From positions 2,448 to 42,757 of the forward strand of contig PEAO01000011.1 of assembly GCA_002753615.1 (NCBI GenBank): 40,310 bases of DNA, read 5' to 3'. The notes under the pieces were generated by a model. It saw only the letters and a program-made list of their open reading frames with translations. It searched no databases and had not been told where the DNA came from. The position numbers and the translations under genes were made by a program. The stretch is from Magnetococcales bacterium DCbin2 (lineage in GTDB: Bacteria; Pseudomonadota; Magnetococcia; Magnetococcales; UBA8363). This document shows, in pieces, positions 10,852-40,310 of this stretch (within the stretch, counting starts at the first letter, position 1; each line of letters starts with the position of its first letter).

Positions 10852-11498
10852 GCTTGTCGTCTCACTGCCAAAACCGTATCCACATCCTGTTTCTCCGCAC
10901 CTGGGAGAATACCACGCCGAGAAAAAGGGACAACGTTACTTCCGATAACCTCACCCGCACGCGGCCCCAAGAACAACCATTGTTCTTCTGCCATTTTATC
11001 TCGCACCACAAGTTCCCACCCCTCCAAAAGGCCGAAAATGCGCGATAATTCAGCACCTTCCAATCCAAATTGGTCAGTCAACTGTTGTTGGGACAAACGA
11101 TTTTTGGCGCGGATCTCTTCCAGAATAGGCCGGACCTTGCGTCGCTGGGTGACGATTTCTGGAATGGAACACTCGCGCACAGCCAAACGATCCTCCAACA
11201 CATTGCGCAACATGCGCCAACGCGAGGCATACCGTATTGACAGAGCATCCAACGTTGCCGCACGATCTGCATCATCCGCCACATCCTCCAGATGCAGGGC
11301 CAACGCCTCCATCTCCCTGGTCGCGGGATGATTCATCAAGATCCTGGCAAACCGAACCCGATAGGCAAAATCCAAGACTTCGGCCAATCGTTCACGCCAG
11401 CGGTCAGGCGGAATAGCACGGACCGCATTCAATATGTCCTGGAGGTCAGGCACCAAGGCCAACCAAGCGGGAGAGACTTCATTAAGATTAAAATTCAT
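10848..11498 (-). CDS. Winged-helix-like protein of unknown function
   Basis: About 216 residues from the chosen ATG (MNFNLNEVSPAW). I chose this start because longer readings run into the end of the upstream nitrilase gene; this one leaves an 11-nt gap. No Shine-Dalgarno sequence is obvious. The N-terminal half is helical (DRWRERLAEVLDFAYRVRFARIL, then an acidic HLEDVADDADRAA stretch). The middle has a segment that reads like a MarR/ROK-type winged helix (ILEEIRAKNRLSQQQLTDQF followed by GAELSRIFGLLEGWELVVRD). It overlaps the KGGVGR ATPase by 4 bp. It may be the DNA-binding regulator or adaptor of the operon. The function is inference; I recognise no family. Confidence 0.65.
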   Translation of the reverse strand: MNFNLNEVSPAWLALVPDLQDILNAVRAIPPDRWRERLAEVLDFAYRVRFARILMNHPATREMEALALHLEDVADDADRAATLDALSIRYASRWRMLRNVLEDRLAVRECSIPEIVTQRRKVRPILEEIRAKNRLSQQQLTDQFGLEGAELSRIFGLLEGWELVVRDKMAEEQWLFLGPRAGEVIGSNVVPFSRRGILPGAEKQDVDTVLAVRRQA

Positions 11499-11509
11499 GG
11501 CAACCAACT

Positions 11510-12442
11510 TTAAATAGGAATCGACACCAGACGCAACCAAGGCTGGATGGTGCATAATTGACTTTTTCCCACCGCATCTGGCCAACAGGCAAAACCGTGG
11601 CTATTACCCTCTGCATAAGTGCCAGACGGACACTGGTTAGGGACCAAAGACCGTGTTCCACAACAGTTGACCAAAGAGTTAGCAGTTTTTTCATGGGATC
11701 TGACACCCTGGATGGGCGTCATGGAAGGGATAAAGGCCCAATCTGGGGCAATCTCTTGCCATGGCAACCTGTAAAATTGATCCTCTTCCAAAAAATCCCG
11801 ACAAATGGCCAGTGCCACCAAGCCCAGAGGGGTGTTCAGGAGATGCAAACATTTTCCGGGCGTAATAACCTCATGAACATGACCGGTATCCATGGGAAGC
11901 ATCTTGTCGTGGATCAAAATCTCATGTCCTTTGCCATCCAGCAACCGGGTACGATTGACTGGTATTTCCGAATACGCGTCTGGCCTTTCATGAAAACTCC
12001 CAGGAACCACCATGCAAAAAGGGTGCGACTCGTCTCGCAGCCAACAGCACACTTCCTGGCGCAACTTTGGACAAAGACTCAGTTCCGGCAACACCACCAC
12101 ATCCGCCCCCTGGGTACGCGCTTCCTCCAACGCCTGATACAGACTGGCACGCCTGCCATCCAGATGCAGCAATTGGGAACATGTATACTTTCCATCCGGC
12201 CTATCGCGCCAATCGGGTTGGATCCCGTCGGCAAAACTCCCCAGGTAGCATTTCACCGGACGTTGACTGGCAACCAAGCTTTTTAAACCTTGCCGCAGGG
12301 ATAAGGAGGGCATAACCACACGAACGTCATCTCCATTCTCCTGAGATGGAATAATATGATGGTGTCGCAAATGGTTACGAATATGACCGGCTTGTTTTTG
12401 ATGAACGGTCGGACCCAAAGGACGATGACGCCGGAACGCCAT
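11510..12442 (-). CDS. Nitrilase/carbon-nitrogen hydrolase-fold protein
   Basis: Residues match the nitrilase superfamily Glu-Lys-Cys triad: Glu in VVVLPELSL (about 120), Lys in HDKMLP (about 180) and Cys in VALAICRDF (about 214), with family-like spacing. The family cleaves or transfers at amide, nitrile or carbamoyl C-N bonds. The first beta strand is probably VKCYLGSFADG near residue 63, so about 60 N-terminal residues are an extension. I chose the ATG at 12442 because a strong GGGGGAGGG site lies 6 nt before it. This start overlaps the preceding small gene by 68 nt. A GTG at 12319 with GGAG about 11 nt upstream is an alternative that removes the overlap. The triad is intact, so it is probably catalytic; no substrate can be named. 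Its place beside a KGGVGR-TPR ATPase suggests a regulated effector. Confidence 0.75.
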   Translation of the reverse strand: MAFRRHRPLGPTVHQKQAGHIRNHLRHHHIIPSQENGDDVRVVMPSLSLRQGLKSLVASQRPVKCYLGSFADGIQPDWRDRPDGKYTCSQLLHLDGRRASLYQALEEARTQGADVVVLPELSLCPKLRQEVCCWLRDESHPFCMVVPGSFHERPDAYSEIPVNRTRLLDGKGHEILIHDKMLPMDTGHVHEVITPGKCLHLLNTPLGLVALAICRDFLEEDQFYRLPWQEIAPDWAFIPSMTPIQGVRSHEKTANSLVNCCGTRSLVPNQCPSGTYAEGNSHGFACWPDAVGKSQLCTIQPWLRLVSIPI

Positions 12443-13039: not shown

Positions 13040-13127
13040 GGATGGGTGGCTGAGCGGTTTAAAGCAGCGGTCTTGAAAACCGCCGTGTCGCAAGGCACCG
13101 GGGGTTCAAATCCCTCCCCATCCGCCA
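13040..13127 (+). tRNA. tRNA-Ser (anticodon TGA)
   Basis: 88 nt including an encoded CCA. The acceptor stem GGATGGG (13040-13046) pairs with CCCATCC (13117-13123), then discriminator G and CCA. The anticodon stem GCGGT (13067-13071) pairs with ACCGC (13079-13083) around a loop with TGA at 13074-13076. A long variable arm, typical of tRNA-Ser, and a GGGTTCAAATCCC T-arm are present. It reads UCA codons. The 3' half is the probable attachment site of the element whose integrase starts about 500 nt downstream; no second copy of the tRNA 3' end was found in the window. Confidence 0.95.
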
Positions 13128-13623: not shown

Positions 13624-15441
13624 ATGCCGATTCAAACCCACCTTGTAAAACGAGGGCAGCGTTACGGCCTGCGCCGTAAAATACCACGCAACATCGCCTA
13701 CCTCGTCCAACAGAACCTCGACCTATGGCGGGCATTGACCGCACCAGGAGGTGTCCGCAAGGAGGATTGGGATATTTTGATCGGTGAACAGGGTCAACTC
13801 AAAACGCTGATCTGGATTTCTTTGATGACCTCCGACCATTCTGAGGCCGCTGAATCTGCCCGGACCAAAGACGCCATGATCGACGCCCTTTGCTCGGAGG
13901 TGCGAAAAACTTTCGAGGCGGCCCAGATGCAACCCAAACGATCCTTGAGCAATCAAGACGTAACACAAATGGCCATGCTGTGGTTGCACCGCCGAGAAGC
14001 GCAGTTACCACCAGAAGAATTGTCGGGCATTCCCGAAGATGCTGATACCTACCTGGAAATCGTAAGAGATGATCTGGGAGCGTTTTCAAACTTCGATGAC
14101 CCCAGCGTGATGGGGTGGGCTTTCAAAGAGGCCCAGAGATTGGTAACGGAATTGGGCTTTGCTGGGGAGCCAGGAGCGGCACCGTTCAATCAACTTGCCC
14201 ACTATATCGCCAGAGGTGAGGTGGAACGATTGAGACGACGAGAGGCCAGACTACGAGGGGGATACGAACACAAGAGCTTTGACCGACTATTTGATCCCGT
14301 GGATGGAGTGCAGGAACCGGAAGTTGCAGCTCCCCTAATAGTCATGACCTTGACTGATCTTATCAATCATTATCTGGCTAATCTTGACCGTCGTGGTGTT
14401 GCAGAGAAAACCAAGATTGGATACCGGGTGATCTTTGATGTCCTGAAAGAATTGCTGGGGCCAGACAAGCCAATCAAAAGGATCAACCGCGAAGATTGCC
14501 GGAAGGTCAGAGAATCCCTGGTCGCACTGCCACCGAATGCCTCAAAGCGATTTAAAGGAATGGGGTTGGCAGAGATCATCGCAAAAGCCAAGGCCGGGGG
14601 CATTCCTGGACTCAGCCACAAAACCTTACAGAACTACCTGATCAATCTGGCCGCCCTATTCAATTATGCCGTTGAAGAAGAATTCATGGATTCCAACCCA
14701 GCAAAAGGGTTGCAAGATGGGTTTCCCAAACTTTCAAGCAAGACGAAGCGGGGGCCCTTCAGCACGGCACAGCTTCAAAAGATTTTCAATGCGCCTTTGT
14801 ATGTGGGCTGTAGAGACGACCAGATGGGATACGCTTTCCCTGGACCCAACGTGATTCGACGGGGTAGATTCTGGGTGCCCCTGCTGGCATTATATCACGG
14901 TGTGCGCATGAACGAGGCCTGCCAGTTGTTGGTATCTGACGTGGTCGTCACTGGAGGGATTACAACCATCAAAATCCAGATCAATGATGAGGACGCGCCA
15001 GATGTACCAGAAGGACATCAGAAGAAATTGAAAACCGCTGCCGCCGCCAGGGACATCCCCCTCCACCCTGAGCTGGTGAAGATAGGCTTCCTGCACTACT
15101 GGGAGGACATGCGGGTAAAGGGTGATAACCGGTTGTTTCCTGAGCTGACTACAGCAGCGACAGGATACCTGTCAGACAATTTCTCCAAATGGTTCGGTGG
15201 ATTTCTGACTAAGATCGAAGCCAAGGAACCCCGCACGTCGTTCCACAGTTTCCGACACTGCTTCCGAGATGCGTTACGGCGGGCGGAGGTCAGCCAAGAT
15301 ATGGCGCGTCTTCTCGGCGGGTGGTCTGGGGGCGGAACAGATCAGGATTATGGACATGGCAGTGAACTGCTACCTGCTAAGGCGAAAGCTATTGCCAAGA
15401 TAGAGTATCCTGGGTTGGATCTGTCGCACCTGTATGTATGA
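13624..15441 (+). CDS. Tyrosine recombinase (phage-type integrase)
   Basis: 605 residues. The N-terminus (RYGLRRKIPRNIAYLV) resembles the DUF6538-like region found in long proteobacterial integrases. Next come a SAM-like core-binding domain (about 240-350) and the catalytic domain: first Arg in YHGVRMNEAC, HSFRH box, Trp in LLGGWSGG and the nucleophile Tyr in DQDYGHG. All catalytic positions are present, so it is probably active. It integrates or excises DNA by strand exchange, most likely at the adjacent tRNA-Ser gene. The ribosome site is weak. The long leader holds repeats that may be its binding sites. Confidence 0.9.
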   Translation: MPIQTHLVKRGQRYGLRRKIPRNIAYLVQQNLDLWRALTAPGGVRKEDWDILIGEQGQLKTLIWISLMTSDHSEAAESARTKDAMIDALCSEVRKTFEAAQMQPKRSLSNQDVTQMAMLWLHRREAQLPPEELSGIPEDADTYLEIVRDDLGAFSNFDDPSVMGWAFKEAQRLVTELGFAGEPGAAPFNQLAHYIARGEVERLRRREARLRGGYEHKSFDRLFDPVDGVQEPEVAAPLIVMTLTDLINHYLANLDRRGVAEKTKIGYRVIFDVLKELLGPDKPIKRINREDCRKVRESLVALPPNASKRFKGMGLAEIIAKAKAGGIPGLSHKTLQNYLINLAALFNYAVEEEFMDSNPAKGLQDGFPKLSSKTKRGPFSTAQLQKIFNAPLYVGCRDDQMGYAFPGPNVIRRGRFWVPLLALYHGVRMNEACQLLVSDVVVTGGITTIKIQINDEDAPDVPEGHQKKLKTAAAARDIPLHPELVKIGFLHYWEDMRVKGDNRLFPELTTAATGYLSDNFSKWFGGFLTKIEAKEPRTSFHSFRHCFRDALRRAEVSQDMARLLGGWSGGGTDQDYGHGSELLPAKAKAIAKIEYPGLDLSHLYV

Positions 15442-22128: not shown

Positions 22129-22709
22129 ACACCAAGGGGTTGGCAAAAGCTGGGGCTGGCCATCCGATGCTTTACGGTGCCAAGACCGAGGCCATAGAGA
22201 CGCGCCGGGTGAAAATTCGAAAGCTGATGGCCAGAGGCATCACAGGTTCCCAGATGGCCTCCATGCTCGGAGTGGATGCGGAGGTGGTGTACAAGGACAT
22301 CGCCAGCATCCGCAACTTCATCGCCAAGGAACTCCAAGGCAGTGACGCCCTGGCTCTGGTAGCGGAATCCCTTGGTGTTTTGGATGAGGTGCGGGCCAGT
22401 GCATTAAAGGACATGGACAAGGCTGAAACCCCATTTGAGCGATCCATAGCTCGGCGGGATGTGATCCGAGTTGAGGCAGAGCGGATGAAATGTGTTCTCC
22501 TGGCTACGGGTGGAATGGGTGGCAGGGGCATGATCAATATCACCAATACCATTGAGGGAGACCCTGTTCCTCTTTTGGAAGACCAGCACCAAAAAGTAAT
22601 TGATGTGGCGAGGCAACTCCTTGGGGAGGTTTTTCAGATGGAAGGCAATGCTGCGCCGTTTTCCCAGCCAAATGATACTGTCGTTAATTGCAAGGAGGAA
22701 GGACCGTGA
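22125..22709 (+). CDS. Helix-turn-helix protein, candidate terminase small subunit
   Basis: 194 residues. RRVKIRKLMARGITGSQMAS followed by MLGVDAEVVYKDI is a clear helix-turn-helix, followed by helical segments and an acidic C-terminus. In phages this architecture upstream of the large terminase is typical of TerS, which binds packaging DNA. Start overlaps the UDG-like stop (ATGA); stop overlaps the next start (GTGA). The position two genes before TerL supports the call; the family was not verified. Confidence 0.55.
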   Translation: MNTKGLAKAGAGHPMLYGAKTEAIETRRVKIRKLMARGITGSQMASMLGVDAEVVYKDIASIRNFIAKELQGSDALALVAESLGVLDEVRASALKDMDKAETPFERSIARRDVIRVEAERMKCVLLATGGMGGRGMINITNTIEGDPVPLLEDQHQKVIDVARQLLGEVFQMEGNAAPFSQPNDTVVNCKEEGP

Positions 22710-24124
22710 ACTCAGCCGTTGAAGTCGCAGGAATCAAACTCCAGAAGAAAAAAGAACAGCACGGGATCATCCCGGACCTGTTGCCACTCAAGGTGCTGGT
22801 AGCCTCTCTCCAAGAAGACCCAAAGAATGCCCGTAGCCACTCAGATGAGAGTACCCAGCAAGTAGCCGAGTCGCTTCGGCTGTACGGCCAAAGAAAACCG
22901 ATTGTGGTAAACGGGAAAACAGGTTTCGTCGAGGCGGGAAATGGTACTCTGCGAGCCGCCAGGAAATTGGGATGGTCCCATGTTGCTGCCGTTCGTGTCG
23001 AAGACGATCACCAGACCGCCACCGGGTATGCCATCGCAGATAATCGTGTGGCAGAACTGTCCGAGTGGGACAACGATGCCTTGAAAGCACTGCTCGACAG
23101 CATCGACAATCCTCTGGAAATCCCAGGCGTGGACGATGACTGGTTAAAAACCCTGGAATGGACGAACGAAGAGACCCCCTCTATCAGCGATGTGGATTTT
23201 ATTCCAGAACCACCAGAGAATCCAGTCTCCCGCCCTGGCGACCTTTGGGTCGTGGGCGACCACCGCCTTCTGTGCGGCAGCAGCACCGAGGAAAAGGATG
23301 TGCAGCGGCTCATGAAAGGTGAAGAAGCTATTCTGTTTGCGACCGATCCCCCGTACCTCGTCGATTACGACGGCACCAACCATCCCCCGAACCAGAACGC
23401 CAAGGAAAAACTGGCGAAGGCCAAGGCGGCTGCGGCAGGCAAGCCGGTCAAGGGCTGGAAGGATGGCAACAAGGATTGGTCGGATACGTATGGCATTACA
23501 TGGGATGACTCAAGCCAAGGCCCGGAGCTTTACGAGGGGTTCATCCGAGTGGCCATCGACCATGCAATTAGCGACCATGCCGCTTGGTACTGCTGGCATG
23601 CTTCCCGCCGTCAGGCGATGTTGGAGGCGGTCTGGGAAAAAATGGGTGCCTTCGTCCACCAACAGATTGTCTGGAATAAAAACTCCCCGGTCCTGACCAG
23701 AACGCATTATCTCTGGAAGCACGAACCCTGCTTCTATGGCTGGATCAAAGGCAACAGGCCAGAAAAGTTGGAAAACGCTGAACCAGCTTATACCGTCTGG
23801 GACATCCCAGGACTGGCTGGTGATGCACGTCCAGACCACCCGACGCCAAAACCTCTGGAGTGCTTTGCCATCCCCATGCGCCAGCACGTACCCAAGGGTG
23901 GGCTGTGCTACGAGCCATTCTCCGGCAGTGGCAGTCAGATCATGGCCGGTGAGATGGTCGGTCGTCGGGTCTACGCCATGGAGATCAGCCCTGTTTATGT
24001 GGACGTAGCGGTGCGGCGGTTCATCAATGCCACCGGCAAGATCGTTTATCTGGAGGGATCCGGCGGCAAGACCTTTGAGGATGTGGCGGCGGAACGTGGC
24101 ATCATTCTGAATCAGGCGGCTTAA
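22706..24124 (+). CDS. ParB-domain DNA methyltransferase (phage type)
   Basis: 472 residues from GTG at 22706, preceded by AAGGAGGA. Residues about 28-120 are a ParB/sulfiredoxin-like domain (NARSHSDESTQQVAESL, then GFVEAGNGTLRAARKLGW). Then comes an N4/N6 methyltransferase with catalytic DPPY at 214-217 and SAM-binding PFSGSGS at 404-410, followed by the VYAMEISPVYVDVAVRRF helix. DPPY before FxGxG indicates the beta-class order. Phages and satellites use such enzymes to self-protect DNA or mark packaging sites. The ParB part may position or regulate it. Start overlaps the previous stop (GTGA). Confidence 0.88.
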   Translation: MNSAVEVAGIKLQKKKEQHGIIPDLLPLKVLVASLQEDPKNARSHSDESTQQVAESLRLYGQRKPIVVNGKTGFVEAGNGTLRAARKLGWSHVAAVRVEDDHQTATGYAIADNRVAELSEWDNDALKALLDSIDNPLEIPGVDDDWLKTLEWTNEETPSISDVDFIPEPPENPVSRPGDLWVVGDHRLLCGSSTEEKDVQRLMKGEEAILFATDPPYLVDYDGTNHPPNQNAKEKLAKAKAAAAGKPVKGWKDGNKDWSDTYGITWDDSSQGPELYEGFIRVAIDHAISDHAAWYCWHASRRQAMLEAVWEKMGAFVHQQIVWNKNSPVLTRTHYLWKHEPCFYGWIKGNRPEKLENAEPAYTVWDIPGLAGDARPDHPTPKPLECFAIPMRQHVPKGGLCYEPFSGSGSQIMAGEMVGRRVYAMEISPVYVDVAVRRFINATGKIVYLEGSGGKTFEDVAAERGIILNQAA

Positions 24125-29094: not shown

Positions 29095-30021
29095 ATGGAC
29101 ACCAATCTCCCCACCCAAATCACCAACACCGCCCTTTCATTCCAGGTCAACGGGTACATTGCGGCGGCCATGGCCCAGAGAACCACTGCGGCTTATCAAC
29201 GTGATCTCTTCCGGTTCTTGGACTGGGGTGGCCAGATACCGGCGGCACCAGAGGCTCTCGCCACCTACCTCAGTACCCACGCCGAAAGCCACAAGGCATC
29301 CACGCTGATTCGCTGGATGGTCTCGATCTCCAAGGCCCACACCACCCAGGGGATGACGGACCCCACGAAAACCGAGTTGGTCAAAGTGGTGATCAAGGGA
29401 ATCAGGCGCACCCATGGTTCCCAACAAAGGCAAGTCACTCCCGCCATTCGGGAGGACATCATCGCCATGGTAAAAAATGCCACGGGGGCAGGCCCGAAGG
29501 AAACCAGAGACCGGGCTTTGCTTCTGCTGGGCTTCGCGGGGGCATTCCGCAGGTCGGAGTTGGTGACTCTGAACGTGGAAGACATCCAGGAGGTGCGCGA
29601 AGGACTGACCATCACCCTTCAACGGAGCAAAACCGATCAGGAGGGGTGTGGGCGCAAGATTGGCATCCCTTTCGCCCGTGGGGCGCATTGCCCGGTCAAG
29701 GCCATCAAATCCTGGCTCCAGGTTGCAGGCATCACTGATGGGCCGATCTTCCGGGGCGTAGACCGCCATGGCAACGTGGGCGAACGCTTGTCAAACCATG
29801 CCGTGGCCAGGATCATCAAAGCATGGGCTGAAAAAGCGGGTCTGGACCCTGCGGACTATGCTGGCCACAGTCTGCGGTCGGGCTTGGTGACAAGTGCGGC
29901 CAACGCCGGGATTGCCAACCACAAAATCAGAGCGCAGACTGGCCACAAGGGCGATACCATGTTGAACCGCTATATCCGGGACGGCCAGATGTTTGTGGAC
30001 AATGCCGCCGGTATTCTCTGA
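29095..30021 (+). CDS. Second tyrosine recombinase (XerC/D-like)
   Basis: 308 residues, the length of a Xer-type enzyme. N-terminal SAM-like domain (AAMAQRTTAAYQRDLFRFLD), then catalytic Arg in AGAFRRSEL, Lys in RSKTDQ, HSLRSG box, GHKG and nucleophile Tyr in LNRYIRDGQ. All catalytic residues are present. GAGG precedes the ATG. It is unrelated to the 605-residue integrase and probably belonged to a different element. The inverted repeat upstream is a candidate target. Confidence 0.88.
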   Translation: MDTNLPTQITNTALSFQVNGYIAAAMAQRTTAAYQRDLFRFLDWGGQIPAAPEALATYLSTHAESHKASTLIRWMVSISKAHTTQGMTDPTKTELVKVVIKGIRRTHGSQQRQVTPAIREDIIAMVKNATGAGPKETRDRALLLLGFAGAFRRSELVTLNVEDIQEVREGLTITLQRSKTDQEGCGRKIGIPFARGAHCPVKAIKSWLQVAGITDGPIFRGVDRHGNVGERLSNHAVARIIKAWAEKAGLDPADYAGHSLRSGLVTSAANAGIANHKIRAQTGHKGDTMLNRYIRDGQMFVDNAAGIL

Positions 30022-31434: not shown

Positions 31435-32069
31435 TTGATTTCCCTCCGTCATGCGTCTGGGCAACTCTGCACGAAACGTTGTGCATTCGCACTTGGCTGC
31501 ATTTGCTGCTTTATTGGTATCGACTCGGTGATCTGGCTCGGCAACGATCTGGGCGCACTCACCCTTGAGTCGGACAAACGCACGATTTCTGTCCCGAACG
31601 CAGGTGTGGCCATCGCCAGGGTGGCATACCGTTTCATGGCCCGATCCTGGGGCTTGTCCGCGCCATCGACTGTGGCCGGGTTGGACGAATATCCGGTGCA
31701 TGCTCCTTTGACCGTCACCACGGGGGATGCGCTGGGTACTGGCAAGATATTCTACCAGCGGGGTGATGGTACGTTTCGGGGCCAGGATATCTCTGACCCG
31801 CTTTTGACCACCGAAATGAGGCCAAACGTTCCCGTGGCCGCGCTGAGATTGACGCCGGTGAGCCGTTGCAGGAGGTGTCTTTGACCTGTCCGCATCGGCC
31901 TGGGCTGATGCAGGGACAACTGGTCGAGGTTCACGATGCGCTTATGGGCCAGTCGTGGCGCGGGGAAATAACATCTATGATTCCATTACGCCGCTGGGCC
32001 AAAACTGATAACGTCCTTGGAGGTGCTTCGTCATGTCCAATCCAGTGTTTGACTTGCAGGGCATCTTGA
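31435..32069 (+). pseudogene. Frameshifted remnant, probably of a phage gene
   Basis: An open frame 31435-31884 encodes a plausible protein (SDKRTISVPNAGVAIARVAY, then SWGLSAPSTVAGLDEYPVHA) that ends at 31884. The sequence seems to continue in another frame from about 31866 (PGLMQGQLVEVHDALMGQSW, then RGEITSM) and then degenerates. The two parts read like one ancestral protein split by a frameshift. Family not certain. Confidence 0.4.
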
Positions 32070-32389
32070 CCGAGAAGGCAGCATCCCTGGCCGTGGTCAT
32101 CTCGATTGATGGTGGCGTGGCTCATGTAGCGATTAGAAATGGTGTTGTCGATGTGGCGTTTGCTGAAGGGATAAGGGTTGTTCAGGCATTGGCCTATGGC
32201 TTTCAGATGCTCCGGCGTGCGTTGCCGCATCACGGTATCGTCTCTTCCAAAAATCGACCAACTACCGGACACTACCCCTCGCTCGGTAAGTTTACATTAC
32301 GTATAGTATTGAATTCAGGGATGTTGCGAGCGCACCGGTTGAAAGAAATTCTGCGGTGGACGGATCATGGGCCAGTGAACAATCAGTGA
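32033..32389 (+). CDS. Small phage-like protein, C-terminus probably foreign
   Basis: 118 residues. GGAGG lies about 10 nt before the ATG. The first about 55 residues (MSNPVFDLQGILTEKAASLA, VVISIDGGVAHVAIRNG) look like a real small beta-rich phage protein. The rest, after about VVQALAYG, loses that character and runs into the leader of the type I operon, so the gene is probably truncated by recombination at about 32.2 kb. Confidence 0.4.
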   Translation: MSNPVFDLQGILTEKAASLAVVISIDGGVAHVAIRNGVVDVAFAEGIRVVQALAYGFQMLRRALPHHGIVSSKNRPTTGHYPSLGKFTLRIVLNSGMLRAHRLKEILRWTDHGPVNNQ

Positions 32390-32402: not shown

Positions 32403-33887
32403 GTGGACCTGCCCACGCTTTCAAACCATTTGTGGGAGTCGGCCAATATCCTGCGTGGCCCCGTGGATGCGGCTGATTTCAAGACATATATTTTTCCGTT
32501 ATTATTTTTCAAGCGCATCTCCGACGTTTACGACGAAGAGATCTCCACAGCTCTTGCGGAATCCGATGGGGATGCGGAATACGCCCATTTCCCCGAAAAT
32601 CACCGTTTCCAGATCCCTGAAGGATGCCACTGGCAGGATGTTCGCGCCCGGACTACCAACGTCGGGCACGCCTTGCAGAGTGCCATGCGTGGGATCGAAC
32701 AAGCCAACCCGGATACATTGCACGGCATCTTTGGCGATGCCCAGTGGAGCAACAAAGATCGGCTGTCGGACAACCTGCTCAAGAATCTGATTGAGCATTT
32801 TTCCAAACTCTCCCTGGGAAACCGCGATACCGAGGCGGATATCCTGGGCCAATCCTACGAATACCTGATCAAGAAATTTGCCGACGCCACCAACAAAAAA
32901 GCCGGGGAGTTCTACACCCCGCGCTCAGTGGTGGCGTTGATGACGCGGATTCTGGCTCCCCAGGAAGGCGAGACCATCTACGATCCTGCCTGTGGTACGG
33001 GTGGCATGCTGTTGGAGGCGATTCATCATGTGAGGCGCAGCGGCGGCAACGTCCGTATGTTGTTGGGACGTCTGTTCGGACAGGAAAAGAACCTCACCAC
33101 CTCCGCTATTGCCCGCATGAACCTGTTTCTGCATGGCGCGGAGGATTTTCGCATCGAACGGGGTGACACCCTGAGATCGCCTGCCTTCTATGCGGGTGAC
33201 AACCTCGCCACCTTCGATTGCGTCATCGCCAACCCGCCATTCTCACTGAAAAAGTGGGGGGAAGAAGTTTGGGAAAGCGATCCCTTCGGTAGGAATTTTG
33301 CCGGGCTGCCACCAGCCAACAGCGGCGATTTCGCCTGGGTGCAACACATGATCAAATCCATGGCCCCGAAAACGGGTCGCATGGCGGTGGTGCTTCCCCA
33401 TGGAGTTTTGTTTCGGACGGCCAAGGAAGGCACTATTCGGAAACGAATCCTGGAATTGGATCTTCTGGATGCGGTAATCGGCTTGGGTTCCAACCTGTTT
33501 TACGGAACCGGGCTTGCCGCCAGTGTTCTGGTGTTTCGGGTCAAGAAGCCAAAGGAACGCAAAGGTCGGGTACTCATCATCGATGCCTCACGGGAGTTCA
33601 AGAAGGGGCGCGCCCAGAACGAACTGCTGCCGGAGCATGTGGACCGGATCTACCAATGGTACATCAATGGCCAGGATGTAGATGGCGTTGCCCGGATGGT
33701 GGGCCTGAGGGAAATCGCCGAAAACGACTATAACCTCAACATTCCTCGCTATGTGGAGCCGGTAATCGAGGAGGAGACCATCACGGTCGAGGAGGCATTG
33801 ATCAACCTAAAATTTAGTCTTGAGGCTGCTTACGCCGCCGAGGATCGTCTGGAACGTCTTCTTCAACGGGCAGGATTGATGCCATGA
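32403..33887 (+). CDS. hsdM: Type I restriction-modification methyltransferase subunit HsdM (first copy)
   Basis: 494 residues from GTG at 32403 (GGAG 9 nt upstream). The N-terminal HsdM helical domain (LWESANILRGPVDAADFKTY, FPLLFFKRISD) is followed by FYTPRSV (170-176), SAM-binding DPACGTGG (194-201) and catalytic NPPF (277-280). The enzyme methylates adenine N6 at the site chosen by HsdS. It heads an operon and overlaps the second hsdM by 4 bp. All motifs are intact. Confidence 0.9.
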   Translation: MDLPTLSNHLWESANILRGPVDAADFKTYIFPLLFFKRISDVYDEEISTALAESDGDAEYAHFPENHRFQIPEGCHWQDVRARTTNVGHALQSAMRGIEQANPDTLHGIFGDAQWSNKDRLSDNLLKNLIEHFSKLSLGNRDTEADILGQSYEYLIKKFADATNKKAGEFYTPRSVVALMTRILAPQEGETIYDPACGTGGMLLEAIHHVRRSGGNVRMLLGRLFGQEKNLTTSAIARMNLFLHGAEDFRIERGDTLRSPAFYAGDNLATFDCVIANPPFSLKKWGEEVWESDPFGRNFAGLPPANSGDFAWVQHMIKSMAPKTGRMAVVLPHGVLFRTAKEGTIRKRILELDLLDAVIGLGSNLFYGTGLAASVLVFRVKKPKERKGRVLIIDASREFKKGRAQNELLPEHVDRIYQWYINGQDVDGVARMVGLREIAENDYNLNIPRYVEPVIEEETITVEEALINLKFSLEAAYAAEDRLERLLQRAGLMP

Positions 33888-35431
33888 GCGGCCAACGCAT
33901 AACCCAATCCGAGTTGGAATCCTATCTCTGGGGAGCGGCCACGCTCCTGCGGGGCTACATTGATGCCGGTGACTACAAGCAGTTCATCTTCCCTCTGCTG
34001 TTCTTCAAGCGGTTGTGCGACGTCCATGATGAGGAATGCACCTATGCCCTGGCAGAGTCCGGCGGAGACGAGGCGTATGCCTCCTTCGAGGAAAACCACC
34101 GGTTCCGCATTCCAGCCGGTTCTCATTGGCGCGAAGTGCGCAATAAGTCATCCCATGTGGGCAAGGCGATTCAGGACGCCCTGCGTGCCATTGAAAAGGC
34201 CAACCCGGACAGCCTCTACGGAGTGTTTGGCGACGCCCAGTGGACTAACCAGGAGCGTCTGCCAGATCGGATGCTGAAGGAACTGATCGAACACTTCAGC
34301 AGACACACCCTCTCCCTGGCCAACTGCCCGGAGGATGAACTGGGCATCGGCTATGAATTCCTGATCAAGAAGTTTGCCGACGACTCCGGTCATACGGCGG
34401 CGGAGTTCTATACCAACCGCACGGTGGTCCACCTGATGACGGAAATGTTGGAGCCGCAGCCGGGAGAGTCCATATACGATCCGACCTGCGGGTCGGCGGG
34501 AATGTTGCTCTCGGCGGTGGCTCATCTTCAACGCTGGGGCAAGGAATGGCGTACCCTGCGTCTGTACGGGCAGGAGCGCAATCTGATGACCTCCTCCATC
34601 GGACGCATGAATCTTTTCCTGCACGGCATCGAGGATTTTCGGATCATGCGGGGGGATACCTTGGAGGAGCCCAAGTTCATCGAGGGGGGCCACCTTCAAC
34701 GTTTCGACGTGGTGCTTGCCAATCCGCCATACTCCATCAAACAGTGGGACCGGGACAAATTCGCGACCGATCCCTGGGGCCGCAATCTCCATGGCACACC
34801 GCCCCAGGGCCGGGCCGACTACGCCTTCTGGCAGCACATCATCGCCAGCCTGAATCCCCGCACGGGCCGATGCGCCATCCTGTTTCCCCATGGGGTACTG
34901 TTCCGCAACGAAGAAAAAGCCATGCGGGCCAGGCTGGTGGAGTCCGATGTGGTGGAGTGCGTCCTGGGGCTAGGGCCGAACCTCTTCTACAACTCCCCCA
35001 TGGAAGCCTGCGTCGTCATCTGCCGGATGAACAAACCCAAGGCCCGCAAGGGCAAGGTGTTGTTCATCAATGCGGTGGGGGAAGTGACCCGGGAGCGGGC
35101 GCAGAGTTTTTTGACCGAGGACCATATTGATCGGATCGTTAACGCCTATCGCAAATTTGTCGATGAGCCGGGTTTCACCACGGTGGCGGACCTGGAGGCG
35201 GTTCGTGCCCAGGAGCACAATCTGAGCATTCCCCTCCATGTGCGCGGCAACGGCAATGGCATGAGCGAAAGTCATGGTGATTCCGACATCAAGCTCGGGC
35301 AGGCCATTGCCGATTGGAAGAAGGGATCACGGGAACTGCGGGCCTCGATGGATACTCTGTTCCGGACTTTGTCCCATTCCTTGAAAATTTCCGTGGAGCC
35401 TCCCCAACAGGGCTTAACGGGTCCAGAGTGA
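33884..35431 (+). CDS. hsdM: Second, divergent HsdM methyltransferase subunit
   Basis: 515 residues, start ATGA overlapping the first copy. Same architecture: LWGAATLLRGYIDAGDYKQF, FYTNRT (175-180; Asn in place of the usual Pro), DPTCGSAG (199-206), NPPY (280-283). It is clearly a paralogue but differs at many positions, so the pair is not a recent duplication. Standard type I systems use two copies of a single HsdM per HsdS; two different copies suggest a mixed M1-M2-S complex or specialised roles. More GC-rich than the mobile element before it. Next gene begins 11 nt later. Confidence 0.9.
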   Translation: MSGQRITQSELESYLWGAATLLRGYIDAGDYKQFIFPLLFFKRLCDVHDEECTYALAESGGDEAYASFEENHRFRIPAGSHWREVRNKSSHVGKAIQDALRAIEKANPDSLYGVFGDAQWTNQERLPDRMLKELIEHFSRHTLSLANCPEDELGIGYEFLIKKFADDSGHTAAEFYTNRTVVHLMTEMLEPQPGESIYDPTCGSAGMLLSAVAHLQRWGKEWRTLRLYGQERNLMTSSIGRMNLFLHGIEDFRIMRGDTLEEPKFIEGGHLQRFDVVLANPPYSIKQWDRDKFATDPWGRNLHGTPPQGRADYAFWQHIIASLNPRTGRCAILFPHGVLFRNEEKAMRARLVESDVVECVLGLGPNLFYNSPMEACVVICRMNKPKARKGKVLFINAVGEVTRERAQSFLTEDHIDRIVNAYRKFVDEPGFTTVADLEAVRAQEHNLSIPLHVRGNGNGMSESHGDSDIKLGQAIADWKKGSRELRASMDTLFRTLSHSLKISVEPPQQGLTGPE

Positions 35432-35442
35432 GGATTTAAACC

Positions 35443-36438
35443 ATGGCATCGGGCAACCTGCTGAGACAATTAATCAAGACGGGGGCGGAAGGCAACCTGG
35501 AAGCCTTTAAGAAGGCTTCCGAGGATGTCATCCAGGAAGAGCGGGAGAAACATCACCACCTGCTTGCCAGTGATTTGGAAAAAATCCTTTATGGCCGGTC
35601 TAGCGTCACCAGTCAGCCATTCATCTCCCTGATCAAGCAGGTTCCAAGCGACAAGGAGCGTGGTCTTCCGCTCCTCCATATCAAGGAACCCCTGCGTCGG
35701 CTGGAAGATGTCATCCTTTCCGATGACAACCGCTCCCTGATCGATGAGGTTCTCCAGGAACACCATCGACAGGAGGTGTTGAAGAGCCATGGTCTTGCGC
35801 CAGCGGATCGCCTGCTTTTCTGCGGGCCTCCTGGGTGTGGCAAGACCCTGACGGCGGAAGTCCTGGCCTCGGAACTTGGTCTGCCATTGGCCACCGTGCG
35901 TATCGACAGCGTGGTCTCCTCCTATCTGGGAGAAACGGCCTCCAACCTGCGTCAGGTTCTGGATTTCGTGGCTTCCGTACCCATGGTGGTCCTGTTCGAC
36001 GAGTTTGACGCCCTGGCCAAGGAACGCGCCGATGCGGCGGACCATGGCGAGTTGAAAAGGGTGGTCAACGCCTTCTTGCAGCTTCTCGACGCCTACAATG
36101 GGAGGAGCCTTCTCATCGCCGCCACCAATCACGAAGGCATTCTGGATGCCGCTGTTTGGCGCAGGTTCGACGAGGTTCTGGTTTTCGAACCACCCAACCT
36201 GGAGCAGTTGCGGAAACTGCTGGCCTGCAAGCTGCGCGGTCTGCGACGAAATTTTGAGGTGGACAGTAACGAGATCACCAACCTCTTTAAGGGAATGAGC
36301 CAAGCCGATGTGGAGCGGGTTGTGCGCCGTGCCGCCAAGGAGATGGTTCTGGCTGGGAAGGAGTTTCTGGACGAGCGGCATATCAAGTCGGCCATCCGCC
36401 GGGAAGATGTGCGCCAAGCCCGGATGAAGCGAGGTTGA
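35443..36438 (+). CDS. AAA+ ATPase
   Basis: 331 residues. Helical N-terminus of about 120 residues. Walker A GPPGCGKT (128-135), Walker B VVLFDEFDA (182-190), sensor 1 AATN (226-229) and arginine fingers in RRFDEV (240-245), the classic FtsH/spastin-like AAA layout, followed by the small helical domain (SQADVERVVRRAAKEMVL). AGGAT precedes the ATG. It is paired with the subtilase gene 6 nt downstream. AAA plus S8 protease pairs occur in bacteria; inside a type I operon the ATPase might unfold substrates for the protease or load it. No target can be named. Confidence 0.88.
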   Translation: MASGNLLRQLIKTGAEGNLEAFKKASEDVIQEEREKHHHLLASDLEKILYGRSSVTSQPFISLIKQVPSDKERGLPLLHIKEPLRRLEDVILSDDNRSLIDEVLQEHHRQEVLKSHGLAPADRLLFCGPPGCGKTLTAEVLASELGLPLATVRIDSVVSSYLGETASNLRQVLDFVASVPMVVLFDEFDALAKERADAADHGELKRVVNAFLQLLDAYNGRSLLIAATNHEGILDAAVWRRFDEVLVFEPPNLEQLRKLLACKLRGLRRNFEVDSNEITNLFKGMSQADVERVVRRAAKEMVLAGKEFLDERHIKSAIRREDVRQARMKRG

Positions 36439-36444
36439 TGACCA

Positions 36445-38808
36445 ATGGCTGAATCCTACCCGCATCTGCCGCTGCAAAGGGAAGCCCCGGTCAATGAAAA
36501 ACGATCAGGGACTTACAATCCTCCTGAGGAACCCAATAATGCGCGGGGACACGGTCGCCGACTACAACAGAAGCTTGAAGCAGCACGACAGCAAGTTGCT
36601 ACGGATGTCGGCGGCTTCGATGAGCGTCGTTTATTTCGGTTCACTGTTCAGAAAGGGACTTCTCTGGATTATTTCAATCTACGAAGCCTGTCCCTTGATA
36701 TTGAATTTGTAAGCCAAGAAGGCAGCACTGTTGTCGTTGGGTTTGCTAGCGACGCCGCACTAGAGGTTTTTGAATCCAGACTGTCCACTTTGGTGGGCAC
36801 AGGTGAAGTAACGAACAAAGATGTTTTTTTTGCTCTAAAAAGCGTTGATCGCTGGAGCCCCGAGGATCGCAAGGGGTGGGCACTGAAAAAGCAGGGGTTC
36901 CCCGATATCGATGCTTTCTGCCTGGACGTGGAATTGTGGCCCCTGGAGGACAACCACCAGGGGCGAGACCGGGAATGGATGGCGTTCGAAGGCTGGTTGA
37001 TCGAACAGGGAATTGAAAAGCAGGATCATGTCAAACAGCCCGGCTTGATCCTCTACCGAGTACGATGCAATGTTGTTCAGGCTCAGCAGCTTCTGAGGCA
37101 TCGGGATGTGCGGTCGGTGGACTTGCCACCCAGCTTTGGTTTGGAACGATCCGTCGTCTTTCAGAGTATCCAAAATTTCCAAACTATCAGTCCCCCCGGC
37201 GAGCACGCCCCCGGTATTGTGGTCTTGGACAGCGGCTTGGCCACAGGACACCCCTTGTTGGGGGCAGCGGTAGGAGACGCCCAGAGCTTTTTGCCTGGGG
37301 AGGAGTCTGCCGCCGATGAAAACGGGCATGGCACCCATGTGGCTGGGTTGGCCCTGTATGGGGATTTCGAGAGCAGCCTGCGCTCCCGTTTATTCGTACC
37401 CACGCTGCGCCTGTTCAGCGGCAGGATTCTCGACAAGAACAACGAGAACACCTCTGGCTTTGTCGAAAAGCATATCGAAAAGGCAGTGCGGTATTTCGTG
37501 AAGGAGTACAACTGCCGGGTCTTCAATCTCTCCTTCGGTGACGCCAACAAACCCTACCTGGGCGGCCATCTGAAAGGACTTTCCCTGACTCTGGATGCAC
37601 TTTCCAGAGAACTTGGGGTGTTGTTCGTGGTGTCGGTGGGCAACCACAGGATCGGCGAGGATTCCCCTGATGGACTTGCCTGGCGGGACAACTACCCGCA
37701 CTACCTGCTGGACGAGGCATGGCGGATTATCGAGCCTGCCCCGGCGTTGAATGTACTCACCGTGGGCAGCCTGGCCCGACACAACCAAACCTACAACAGC
37801 CAGTGCTACCCGCTGGACCCGTCAGAGATCCCTATTGCCCAGCCGGATCAGCCATCCCCTTTCACTCGCAGTGGGCATTCCGTGGATGGAACCATCAAGC
37901 CGGAATTGATGGCTCATGGCGGCAACTGGGCACTCAATACTCGGGCTGGCAACGCATTGTTGGATCGGGTTGCGGGTCTGGGGGTCGTCTCGACCAATCA
38001 TCAATTTGCCATTGGCCATCCTTTTGCCGTCGATTCGGGAACCAGTATGGCCGCGCCCCAGGTGGCCCATCTGGCGGCGTCCATCCTGCGGGAACATCCC
38101 GACGCCAGCGCCAACCTATTGCGGGCGTTGCTCTGCGCCCATGCCGTCATGCCAGAAGAAAGCCAAGCCCTGATAGACCGCGACAAGGAGTTCAGGAAGG
38201 TTTGCGGCTACGGGCAGGTGGATGTGACCGCTCTCCACCGCTCTCTTGAAAGCGCGGTTACTCTTATCGCCGGTGGTCCCATCGGGAACAAGCACCATCA
38301 CTTCTACGAGATTCCTGTTCCTGATGAGTTCACTAGCAAAGGAAACCGTCCTCGTGAGGTGTCGGTAGCCTTGGCTTATACACCAGCCGTTCGTACAACA
38401 CGAATCAAATACAAGGCCACACGCATCGATTTCAAGTTAGTCACTGAGGTCAGTCTTGATCAGGTTACAAAGATGTTTAACAAGGCGACCGATGAGAAGG
38501 AGTACGAAAATATCAAGGAAACAGACGCTTCGTGTCGCGTGATTGGTTCGGTGAAGCGTAGTAAAGGGACGGTGCAGGCAGATCGGTGGCTTTTCGATCG
38601 GTTCAATGTCAACTCAAAATTGAGAAAAAACAAATTATTCGTCGTTGTCACCCGCAACGATTTTCCGTGGGGCGAGCCGCTTTGCGCCACCGAAGAGAAC
38701 TATGCCCTGGTGGTCTGCCTGCGTGATCGGGAAAACGAGGAGGCGCGGCTTTATACCCAGGTCAGAACCCAACTCCAGGCGCGGATGCGTGGGAGGGCCA
38801 AGGTATGA
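36445..38808 (+). CDS. Subtilisin-like serine protease (S8 family)
   Basis: 787 residues. Catalytic triad: Asp262 in IVVLDSG, His295 in ENGHGTHVAG, Ser534 in DSGTSMAAPQ; oxyanion Asn400 in VVSVGN. All present, so the protease should be active. No signal peptide is visible; with the cytoplasmic AAA partner this suggests an intracellular protease. The N-terminal 240 residues and C-terminal 240 residues are non-catalytic; parts of them (about 36.5-36.8 kb and 38.3-38.65 kb) are visibly AT-richer than the catalytic core, a mosaic look. It overlaps hsdS by 4 bp. Probable role: cleaving a phage or host protein, or a partner of the same operon. Confidence 0.9.
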   Translation: MAESYPHLPLQREAPVNEKRSGTYNPPEEPNNARGHGRRLQQKLEAARQQVATDVGGFDERRLFRFTVQKGTSLDYFNLRSLSLDIEFVSQEGSTVVVGFASDAALEVFESRLSTLVGTGEVTNKDVFFALKSVDRWSPEDRKGWALKKQGFPDIDAFCLDVELWPLEDNHQGRDREWMAFEGWLIEQGIEKQDHVKQPGLILYRVRCNVVQAQQLLRHRDVRSVDLPPSFGLERSVVFQSIQNFQTISPPGEHAPGIVVLDSGLATGHPLLGAAVGDAQSFLPGEESAADENGHGTHVAGLALYGDFESSLRSRLFVPTLRLFSGRILDKNNENTSGFVEKHIEKAVRYFVKEYNCRVFNLSFGDANKPYLGGHLKGLSLTLDALSRELGVLFVVSVGNHRIGEDSPDGLAWRDNYPHYLLDEAWRIIEPAPALNVLTVGSLARHNQTYNSQCYPLDPSEIPIAQPDQPSPFTRSGHSVDGTIKPELMAHGGNWALNTRAGNALLDRVAGLGVVSTNHQFAIGHPFAVDSGTSMAAPQVAHLAASILREHPDASANLLRALLCAHAVMPEESQALIDRDKEFRKVCGYGQVDVTALHRSLESAVTLIAGGPIGNKHHHFYEIPVPDEFTSKGNRPREVSVALAYTPAVRTTRIKYKATRIDFKLVTEVSLDQVTKMFNKATDEKEYENIKETDASCRVIGSVKRSKGTVQADRWLFDRFNVNSKLRKNKLFVVVTRNDFPWGEPLCATEENYALVVCLRDRENEEARLYTQVRTQLQARMRGRAKV

Positions 38809-40016
38809 GTGGTCGCCCATTGAAGACCGACTGGCGCATGGTGAAGTTCGGCGAGATGACCGACAACATCAACGTGCGCGTTGACCCGGCTGAAGCAGGA
38901 AGTGACATTTACGTCGGTTTGGAGCATCTCGATCCCGAGTCGTTGCACCTGCGACAATGGGGGCAGCCATCCGATGTGACAGGAGACAAACTGAGGTTCC
39001 AGAAAGGGGACATCATCTTTGCCCGGCGTCGGGCTTACCAGCGCAAGCTGGCCGTGGCGGAATTCGATGGCATCTGTTCAGCACATGCCATGGTGGTGAG
39101 GGGCAAGCCCAAGGTGGTGCTGCCGGAGTTCCTGCCGTTCTTCATGCAGTCGGACATGTTTATGGAAAGGGCCATTGAGATCTCGGTGGGTTCCCTGTCG
39201 CCGACCATCAATTGGAAGACGATGGCAGTGCAGGAATTCCCCCTCCCGCCCATCGAGGAGCAGCATCGTATCGCCGAAATCCTCTGGGCGGCGGATGAGG
39301 TGCATCATCGATTCGATAATAGCCTTCGAGAAGCTCAGTCTACCAAACGAGCGGTGTTAACAAAAATGACAACGCATGGGATACGTTCAGCTAAACTGCA
39401 AAAAACTCGTCTTGGAGAAATTGCAGCCCACTGGAGCGTGCGGACGGTTGAGCAAGTCGTATCGTTATGCCAGTATGGACTCTCAATTCAGTTGCATGAA
39501 GAAGGGAAGTACCCGATATTCCGTATGATGAACTACGACGACGGAAAAATTGTTGCAAATGACATGAAGTACGTCGACCTTTCTGGCGAAGACTTCGACT
39601 CATTCAAAGTGCTTGATGGTGACATCCTTTTTAATAGGACCAACAGCGCAGACCTTGTTGGGAAGGTTGGTATTTTCCGATTGGGAGGTGATTTTGTATT
39701 TGCTTCCTATCTTGTGCGGTTGCGCGCAAGAGATAGGGTTATTTTGCCTGACTACTTGAATTATTATCTTAATTCTGATCTAGGGCAGAGACGGATTCTG
39801 GCTTATGGTACACCTGGGGTCAGCCAAACCAATATCAGTGCCGGAAATTTAAAAAAAGTGTTGGTCCCGGTCCCGCCGATTGAGGAACAGGAAGAGATTG
39901 TCCAAATCCTCAATTCTGTTGACAACTCAAAGAAATCAATCGAAGAGCAACTAGCAAGGTCAAGGCATATTCAGAACGATCTTATCAATCAATCGATTAA
40001 TCCTGTTCCGGTGTAG
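38805..40016 (+). CDS. hsdS: Type I specificity subunit HsdS
   Basis: 403 residues with two half-repeats. Each target-recognition domain ends in a conserved element, PLPPIEEQHRIAEIL (146-160) and PVPPIEEQEEIVQIL (355-369), followed by a dimerisation helix. Each half reads one part of a bipartite DNA target. The first half is GC-rich; the second (from about 39320) is clearly AT-richer, which fits exchange of the second domain. Start ATGA overlaps the protease stop. Confidence 0.9.
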   Translation: MSGRPLKTDWRMVKFGEMTDNINVRVDPAEAGSDIYVGLEHLDPESLHLRQWGQPSDVTGDKLRFQKGDIIFARRRAYQRKLAVAEFDGICSAHAMVVRGKPKVVLPEFLPFFMQSDMFMERAIEISVGSLSPTINWKTMAVQEFPLPPIEEQHRIAEILWAADEVHHRFDNSLREAQSTKRAVLTKMTTHGIRSAKLQKTRLGEIAAHWSVRTVEQVVSLCQYGLSIQLHEEGKYPIFRMMNYDDGKIVANDMKYVDLSGEDFDSFKVLDGDILFNRTNSADLVGKVGIFRLGGDFVFASYLVRLRARDRVILPDYLNYYLNSDLGQRRILAYGTPGVSQTNISAGNLKKVLVPVPPIEEQEEIVQILNSVDNSKKSIEEQLARSRHIQNDLINQSINPVPV

Positions 40017-40025
40017 GTGCATACA

Positions 40026-40139
40026 ATGTTTAATGCAGAAAACACCATCAAGCATATGGCCCTGCACACCCGCTCCAGCCAGTTGGCCCTGGACCTCCCC
40101 CACAACACCCCCTCTCTCCGCAACCGGTCGGCACCATGA
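40026..40139 (+). CDS. 37-codon ORF coupled to the Fic gene
   Basis: ATG at 40026 with TAGGTG upstream; the stop overlaps the fic start (ATGA, 40136-40139). Residues begin MFNAENTIKHMALHTRSSQL. The fic gene has no ribosome site of its own, so this short frame probably couples its translation to hsdS. No Ser/Thr-x3-Glu-Gly/Asn motif of Fic antitoxins is visible, so an antitoxin role is not supported. Confidence 0.4.
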   Translation: MFNAENTIKHMALHTRSSQLALDLPHNTPSLRNRSAP

Positions 40140-40310
40140 AATTCGAGGCCTTCCAATCCGGCCAGCTCCGTCAGCAGTACCAGTACAAGAGCTTCCACCC
40201 CGCGCCCATCAACCAGGAGTGGTCCTGGGACGACCCGCGCATCGGCACGTTGCTGGAGCGGGCGTCCAAGGCGTTGGGCGAATTGAACGCCTTCACCCTG
40301 ATCGTGCCCG
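40136..40310 (+). CDS. Fic-family protein, N-terminal part (cut by window end)
   Basis: 58 codons are in the window. The pattern IGTLLERASKALGELNAFTL matches the N-terminal helix of Fic proteins (usually LGRLDG). Fic enzymes transfer AMP or related groups to target proteins. Fic genes are often found between hsdS and hsdR in type I operons. The catalytic HPFxxGNGR motif lies beyond the window, so the call rests on the N-terminus and context. Confidence 0.6.
   Translation, partial: MKFEAFQSGQLRQQYQYKSFHPAPINQEWSWDDPRIGTLLERASKALGELNAFTLIVP

What the first reader, a model, noticed from the sequence alone, without database searches (positions are those of the whole stretch)
32403..40310. Composite type I R-M operon: two HsdM + AAA ATPase + S8 protease + HsdS + Fic
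Six genes and a short ORF form one operon (4-bp overlaps at four junctions, gaps of 6, 9 and 11 nt elsewhere). Two methyltransferases, an ATPase-protease pair and a Fic-like gene surround one specificity subunit. I know no named defence system with this exact composition. It could combine DNA discrimination (M/S) with a protein-killing arm (protease, Fic).
Basis: partly seen in the sequence, partly recalled or inferred. Interest (0 to 1): 0.85.

Follow-up and report, generated by a model that had tools for sequence, protein, structure and literature searches.

The report
Restriction operon carrying embedded protease toxin–antitoxin
A bacterial DNA-restriction operon of a rare two-methylase type carries, in its middle, a second known defence module (a protease and its ATPase partner); the same arrangement recurs at the same spot in distant bacteria, so it is a real stacked defence locus built from known parts rather than a new kind of system.

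Summary
The operon is real and its parts are known. The two HsdM are the M1 (NPPF/AGEF, m6A) and M2 (NPPY/AAEF, m4C) subunits of non-canonical m6A/m4C type I systems. The AAA/S8 pair is a divergent IetAS; its relative SgiAT is an antitoxin–toxin pair. The "short ORF" is no gene: it begins with a 57-bp copy of the hsdR start. The contig stops inside fic; another contig end of the same genome carries the fic 3' end, then intact hsdR. M1-M2-IetA-IetS-S is complete in three further genomes, one (G627) from another class and 96–97% identical in M1, M2 and R to a sister operon without IetAS. The composite is uncommon (4 of 19 M1/M2 operons found), but the site is not random: 7 of 9 occupied M2|S junctions hold toxin–antitoxin-type modules, and two or three of eight "solitary" IetAS loci of this clade keep scars of M2 or S. 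IetS is mosaic and swapped, like HsdS, while M1 and IetA are conserved. Most likely: restriction first, IetAS (plus Fic) as growth-stopping second line. Defence genes embedded in type I operons are known (PrrC, TgvAB): a new variant of a known kind.

The parts
32403..33887 (+). M1, HsdM subunit of the m6A kind (494 aa)
   Evidence: Pfam HsdM_N + N6_Mtase; AGEF at 167, NPPF at 277; best solved relative 7vru chain A, E 9.5e-185
33884..35431 (+). M2, HsdM subunit of the m4C kind (515 aa)
   Evidence: Pfam HsdM_N + N6_Mtase; AAEF at 172, NPPY at 280; best solved relative 7vru chain B, E 1.6e-194
35443..36438 (+). IetA-type AAA ATPase (331 aa), presumed antitoxin/regulator
   Evidence: PADLOC IetA E 1.8e-99; Walker A GPPGCGKT at 128, Walker B VVLFDEFD at 182; dN/dS 0.03 against G046
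36445..38808 (+). IetS-type S8 serine protease (787 aa), presumed toxin/effector
   Evidence: PADLOC IetS E 5.5e-268 over 4-786 of 795; triad stretches DSG 262, HGTH 295, DSGTSMA from 530; D262, H295 and S534 invariant in 10 aligned IetS
38805..40016 (+). HsdS specificity subunit (403 aa, two Methylase_S stretches)
   Evidence: Pfam E 1.6e-27, 2 stretches; PADLOC Specificity_I E 1.3e-141; only about 33% identical to the S of the two closest composites
   Evidence: 82% over 57 bp to the hsdR start on G000:C100; 82% over 57 bp (G046) and 79% over 53 bp (G030) to the hsdR starts there
40136..40310 (+). 5' end of a fic gene, cut by the contig end
   Evidence: 95% identical over 58 aa to the 379-aa Fic in G046; that protein has Fic_N + Fic, SoFic E 6.2e-119 and HPFLDGNGR

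Best explanation
A layered defence operon. M1, M2, S and R form a type I restriction-modification enzyme that should mark one strand with m6A and the other with m4C and cut unmarked DNA. IetAS, placed between M2 and S and co-transcribed, is a second, protein-level line: IetA (AAA ATPase) holds IetS (subtilisin-like protease) in check, and when infection upsets that balance, for instance after a phage has blocked or escaped restriction, IetS cleaves proteins and stops growth before phage is released. Fic, placed between S and R, is a further growth-stopping enzyme. Shown: composition, junctions, recurrence, intact motifs, purifying selection, presence/absence at one site, scars. Inferred: co-transcription, chemistry of the marks, toxin/antitoxin roles (by homology to SgiAT), the trigger, and that the layers act in series.
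For: M1/M2 carry the motif sets of m6A/m4C systems and match the two chains of 7vru best. HsdR is intact in the same genome next to the missing fic end. IetA and IetS match defence profiles over almost full length. The relative SgiAT is antitoxin (ATPase) plus toxin (protease) in E. coli (PMC5006074, passages). The same order recurs in G046, G030 and G627. G627 and G476 are 96-97% identical in M1, M2, R but only G627 has IetAS, so IetAS looks dispensable to the enzyme. Occupied M2|S junctions hold TA-type modules in 7 of 9 cases. dN/dS is below 0.2 for M1, M2, IetA and IetS among the three Magnetococcales composites. Precedent: TgvAB, embedded in an active type I operon, protects by itself, though less than the whole cluster against several phages (PMC11411939, passages).
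Against: No activity is shown for any part. Co-transcription is inferred from spacing only. The trigger is unknown. NCBIfam's curated cut-offs for the named anti-phage pair are not reached (256 of 510 bits; 105.6 of 900), so this is a divergent branch of unproven function. hsdR is frameshifted in G046, so restriction is not always kept. Three of the four composites are from one class. Without the four IetAS cases themselves, TA-type modules fill 3 of 5 occupied junctions, a small number.
Confidence: 0.62

Rival explanations
1. Coupled guard, as in EcoPrrI/PrrC: IetAS is held latent by the M1M2S(R) complex and released when a phage antirestriction protein attacks that complex. The place at M2|S then reflects physical coupling. 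(Not exclusive of the layered reading.)
For: Fixed position at M2|S with ATGA overlap into S in four genomes of two classes; TA-type modules favour that junction; the PrrC precedent; IetS and S are the two genes whose alleles are most swapped.
Against: G476 does without IetAS at 96-97% identity of M1, M2 and R; IetAS of the same clade also occurs without M and S; HigA-type and TumAE modules take the same place, so the site is not specific for IetAS; no direct evidence of contact.
Confidence: 0.2
2. Addiction passenger: IetAS (like HigA-type and TumAE modules) is a selfish or stabilising toxin-antitoxin cassette whose place inside the operon makes loss of the locus costly; defence is secondary.
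For: A relative acts as toxin-antitoxin and promotes maintenance of a genomic island (PMC5006074, title and passages); TA-type modules in 7 of 9 occupied M2|S junctions; in G002 and L034 IetAS persists next to remnants of S, and in G002 of M2, after M and S are gone.
Against: IetS itself has stops in G002 and G022 and is split in G045, so 3 of the 8 solitary loci are decaying; the operon is often without any M2|S cassette (10 of 19); SgiAT gave no killing effect on a plasmid from its own promoter. I lowered this rival from 0.30 to 0.25 when I recounted the broken copies.
Confidence: 0.25
3. One reading: M/S recognise foreign DNA and directly switch on the protease (and Fic) as a protein-killing arm, in place of or beside HsdR.
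For: Gene order and tight spacing.
Against: A full HsdR is present; HsdR (46-93% identical) also follows in 12 of the 13 genome-borne M1M2 operons without IetAS, the 13th being cut by its contig end; IetAS occurs alone with no M/S.
Confidence: 0.06

Closest known systems
m6A/m4C type I systems (PacII-type M1M2S; Zhu et al. 2022, PMC9613975)
   Same: Two different HsdM with AGEF/NPPF and AAEF/NPPY, one S, one R; M1 and M2 best match 7vru chains A and B
   Different: IetAS between M2 and S, fic between S and R; the parts of the paper that I saw (outline, introduction, passages) describe no such insert
IetAS / SgiAT (pTiC58, SGI1; PMC5006074, passages)
   Same: Adjacent AAA ATPase and S8 protease of the same families
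   Different: Divergent branch, about 42% identical at best to IetS on plasmids in the listing; here inside a type I operon, whereas the 4 plasmid copies that I opened have no hsd gene beside them
TgvAB embedded in the V. cholerae VPI-2 type I operon (PMC11411939, abstract, passages, section 10)
   Same: Two-gene defence module inside a type I RM operon, also found outside such operons
   Different: TgvAB is a GmrSD-like restriction system; here a protease/ATPase pair, in an m6A/m4C operon, between M2 and S
EcoPrrI/PrrC (reviewed in PMC3874165, PMC12707154; passages)
   Same: Potential growth-stopping effector inside a type I operon
   Different: PrrC is an anticodon nuclease held by the enzyme complex and released on infection; no such coupling is shown here
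MADS (methylation-associated defence)
   Same: HsdM-like and HsdS-like proteins with accessory genes (recalled)
   Different: MAD2 and MAD5 models are reached only far below cut-off (84 of 720 bits; 39.4 of 400)

Membership tests
m6A/m4C (M1M2S) type I RM | Two different HsdM subunits, one NPPF/AGEF and one NPPY/AAEF | tested here: met
   for the window and three composites; motif definition in PMC9613975
m6A/m4C (M1M2S) type I RM | One S subunit with two recognition stretches | tested here: met
   Pfam Methylase_S, two stretches
m6A/m4C (M1M2S) type I RM | HsdR in the locus | tested here: met
   Intact 966-aa HsdR on G000:C100, starting 223 bp from the contig end that holds the fic 3' end; that C100 follows the window contig is inferred from synteny with G046
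m6A/m4C (M1M2S) type I RM | m4C on one strand and m6A on the other of a bipartite site | not testable with these tools
   Needs a methylome
IetAS | Adjacent IetA-type AAA ATPase and IetS-type S8 protease | tested here: met
   PADLOC E 1.8e-99 and 5.5e-268 over nearly full length
IetAS | Walker and catalytic-triad residues | tested here: met
   D262, H295, S534 invariant in alignment A1 of 10 sequences
IetAS | NCBIfam curated cut-off for the named anti-phage proteins | tested here: not met
   256 of 510 bits (NF042959), 105.6 of 900 bits (NF042956); a naming threshold rather than a defining trait, so I call this a divergent IetAS branch
IetAS | Toxin-antitoxin behaviour and anti-phage activity | not testable with these tools
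   Toxin-antitoxin behaviour is shown for a relative only (SgiAT); IetAS phage defence is recalled
PrrC-like coupled guard | Effector bound and silenced by the type I enzyme | not testable with these tools
   Needs biochemistry; absence from G476 argues against necessity
SoFic-type Fic | Fic core with the HPFx(D/E)GNGR motif (motif recalled) | tested here: inconclusive
   HPFLDGNGR in the G046 orthologue; the window holds only the first 58 codons
MADS | MAD2/MAD5 proteins above cut-off | tested here: not met
   84 of 720 and 39.4 of 400 bits

The most novel reading that the evidence does not exclude
The M2|S junction of m6A/m4C type I operons is a dedicated dock for toxin-antitoxin modules. 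Here IetAS is a coupled guard of the M1M2S enzyme, and IetS is a second recognition subunit whose segments are exchanged between strains, as HsdS target domains are, while the catalytic partners (M1, M2, IetA, R) stay nearly constant.
Probability: 0.2. Interest if true: 0.78.

Novelty: new variant of a known kind. Interest (0 to 1): 0.55.

Why it matters
It ties a protein-cleaving toxin-antitoxin-type defence to a restriction enzyme in one locus, with a natural pair of near-identical operons with and without it (G627 and G476), so that layering or coupling of defences can be tested directly. If IetS proves to be the variable, target-recognising part of IetAS, that would give a handle on what IetAS senses, which I believe is unknown (recalled). 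It also warns that some solitary IetAS loci are relics of such operons.

Tried and rejected
Chance or misassembly: rejected by recurrence in G046, G030 and G627. An unnamed AAA/S8 system: rejected, it is IetAS. MADS: rejected. hsdR missing, or the short ORF a gene: rejected. Phage-borne composite: IetS hits in 9 phage records, none covering 80% of the query; of 9 IMG/VR loci with an IetA relative none shows an hsd gene by blast with this operon's proteins, and some of these loci are short. L109's IetS has no relative by the viral scan, none among 74 genomes of its family besides itself, and under 30% identity in the 15 plasmid rows listed of 149, so that second context rests on a single 3.9-kb contig. 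The class of G320 (289 genomes) gave only G320 itself; the family and order of G627 and the order of G476 gave nothing new. Other phyla were not sampled except through the plasmid, phage and viral collections and one genome-contig scan for close IetS relatives (6 loci).

Rows dropped: of the 14 genomes, G062, G127 and G128 were dropped from the M1/M2 census (HsdM of 41-46% identity with NPPF and no M2 beside it in the map), as was G011's second locus on C38. Of 10 plasmid records only the best two were opened; the rest are at most 46% identical. Shuffled-flank control: 8 of 600 queries had a hit at E <= 0.01, none at the matching position. In one search G042 also gave one hit elsewhere (E 6.7e-4), which I take as chance, and the S remnant after IetS in G002 was not reported by blastn: it rests on reading its translation. 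In one search the G046 hsdR start was entered approximately, so its S-R gap is not used. The sampling is centred on kin of the window, which favours finding composites near it.
Full report
WHAT IS THERE. The window is G000:C198:2448-42757 and ends where the contig ends. On the + strand lie M1 (32403-33887), M2 (33884-35431), an AAA ATPase (35443-36438), an S8 protease (36445-38808), HsdS (38805-40016), a short ORF and the start of a fic gene (40136). Pfam and PADLOC assign HsdM twice, AAA/IetA, Peptidase_S8/IetS and HsdS.

THE TWO METHYLASES. M1 has AGEF and NPPF, M2 has AAEF and NPPY. These are the motif pairs of non-canonical type I systems that make m6A with M1 and m4C with M2 (PMC9613975; outline, introduction and passages seen; the original 2016 report is recalled, and the DOI that I tried is not held). 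In the PDB the best match of M2 is chain B and of M1 chain A of 7vru (E 1.6e-194 and 9.5e-185); that 7vru is PacII M1M2S is recalled.

THE PROTEASE PAIR. The AAA and S8 proteins match PADLOC's IetA (E 1.8e-99) and IetS (E 5.5e-268, 4-786 of 795). They fall below NCBIfam's cut-offs for the named anti-phage pair, so they are a divergent branch. In the relative SgiAT the protease is the toxin and the ATPase the antitoxin (PMC5006074, passages). That IetAS gives phage defence is recalled.

THE MISSING END. hsdR is not in the window, but G000:C100:17787-20684 holds an HsdR 92% identical to that of G030, 966 aa without a stop. The 260 bases at that end of C100 (fic 3' end, spacer, hsdR start) are 98.5% identical to G046. 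So the order here is most likely M1-M2-IetA-IetS-S-fic-R, followed by a 1774-aa protein with an AAA match. The short ORF begins with a copy of the hsdR start: 82% over 57 bp. In G030 only 5' and 3' remnants of fic are left, with other sequence between; in G046 hsdR is frameshifted near residue 290-314.

RECURRENCE. Of 48 genomes of the class, own included, 10 have an IetS relative at E <= 1e-20; 3 of the 10 have the full composite (G000, G046, G030). In 398 genomes of the phylum IetS (PDLC02198, E <= 1e-30) is in 19; the surroundings of all 19 were mapped. Three are the same composites, one more (G241, L109, a 3.9-kb contig) has an HsdS C-terminus directly before a distant IetA-IetS (PADLOC S E 6.4e-37), and 15 have no hsd gene nearby by blast with this operon's proteins, which may miss distant hsd genes.

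HOW OFTEN, AND WHAT ELSE SITS THERE. M1/M2 operons were found in 11 of 398 genomes (maps), in 8 of 369 of the class of G061, 6 of them new, and on 2 plasmids opened: 19 in all. The M2|S junction holds IetAS in 4; a HigA-family/M78 protein with a 116-aa partner in 2 (G027, G011; for both, for G027 only; HigA 54.1 bits against a cut-off of 47.7); a TumA-TumE-like pair in 1 (G506; TumE 79.7 bits against Pfam's 23.4, but below NCBIfam's cut-offs for both); an unidentified 423-aa protein in 1 (G069); a 13.4-kb insertion in 1 (G108); and nothing in 10. So 7 of 9 occupied junctions hold a toxin-antitoxin-type module, 3 of 5 if IetAS is left out. The 116-aa partner of the HigA-type protein matches no family, so that pair is read from arrangement. 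The M1|M2 junction holds GmrSD in G319 and DUF4062 proteins in G069 and G596.

A NATURAL PAIR. G627 (with IetAS) and G476 (without) are 96.6% identical in M1, 97.2% in M2 and 95.7% in R, and 78.5% over 214 aligned residues of S. The enzyme evidently does not need IetAS.

SCARS. Of 12 loci with IetA at least 72% identical to the window's (L035 and L036 nearly the same), 4 are composites. Of the other 8, G002 keeps 205 bp of the M2 3' end directly before IetA (72%, E 2.9e-29) and, by translation, the first residues of S after IetS; L034 keeps 29 of 29 bases of the G627 S start (E 4.8e-6); G042 has 46-48 bp like the M2-IetA joint (E 9e-5), which could also be a leader that travels with IetAS. The other five show none. 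No shuffled control had a hit at the matching place (0 of 600 queries). Some solitary IetAS thus come from composites. In L034 IetAS is flanked by direct repeats (36 bp exact, going on with mismatches) that start within the S remnant.

MOSAIC IetS. Between the window and G046, synonymous divergence is 0.03 in M1, 0.13 in M2, 0.21 in IetA, 1.78 in IetS and 2.18 in S. In 30-residue windows IetS of G030 is like G046 over about 1-180 and like the window over about 210-480. A run test on informative sites gives 134 against a permutation maximum of 42 in 5000 for IetS with G030 as the recombinant; M1 shows nothing (p 0.26 or more); M2 and IetA show small but significant runs in some arrangements. 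So IetS, like HsdS, is exchanged between strains. dN/dS for IetS is 0.12-0.19, so this is allele exchange and no evidence of positive selection. IetS is also more divergent than IetA in solitary copies, so the pattern is not peculiar to the composite.

TREES. In the IetA tree G627 groups with the relic L034 (99/97), and the window with G046 (95/89), with G042, G030 and G002 nearby. Composites occur in both subgroups: one old origin with losses, or two insertions at the same junction; I cannot tell which.

MECHANISM. Most likely layered defence: restriction by M1M2SR, backed by IetAS and Fic as growth-stopping modules. The steps shown by sequence are composition, order, intact motifs, selection, presence/absence and scars. 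The toxin role, trigger and order of action are inferred. A PrrC-like coupled guard and an addiction passenger remain open; against the latter, IetS has stops or is split in 3 of the 8 solitary loci.

KNOWN OR NEW. Embedded effectors in type I operons are known: PrrC (PMC3874165, PMC12707154, PMC3506569; passages) and TgvAB (PMC11411939; abstract, passages and one section). I found no paper on IetAS inside a type I or m6A/m4C operon in seven searches; I saw listings, not all texts, and most subscription papers are not held. Hence: new variant of a known kind.

Noticed in passing
window 31845-32180 and 31519-31963: Repeats just upstream of M1: 79% identical to G000:C33:22838-23172, about 1 kb before another type I operon of this genome (L007), and 72% to G000:C78:95310-95752. 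Perhaps a shared upstream element.
   Followed up: partly
window 13040-13127 and 13624-15441: tRNA-Ser followed by an integrase-like gene, with a second integrase at 29095-30021 and a DNA methylase with a weak ParB_N match at 22688-24124: looks like a genomic island that may include the operon.
   Followed up: no
L034 8894-8955 and 12364-12425: A solitary IetAS flanked by direct repeats that begin inside the remnant of the S gene, as if the pair was moved or duplicated by recombination.
   Followed up: partly
L029 (G045), about 7528-7850 and 11463-11600: Several direct repeats (43, 26, 23 and 16 bp) flank a split IetS locus.
   Followed up: no
L109 (G241:C309): HsdS C-terminus, IetA and IetS overlapping by one base each: a second, distant case of IetAS in a type I operon, in another order.
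   Followed up: partly
L127 3106-3843: A TumA-TumE-like toxin-antitoxin pair between M2 and S of another m6A/m4C operon.
   Followed up: partly
L069 2290-7614: 1774-aa AAA protein after hsdR, weakly like Avs4 and DUF626_VIII profiles; its start is found in G046 on a shorter ORF.
   Followed up: no
L072 13726-15204: PDC-M11A candidate defence protein and further genes between S and R of G069.
   Followed up: no
L006 and L007: Two more type I-like loci in the same genome, so this host carries at least three.
   Followed up: no
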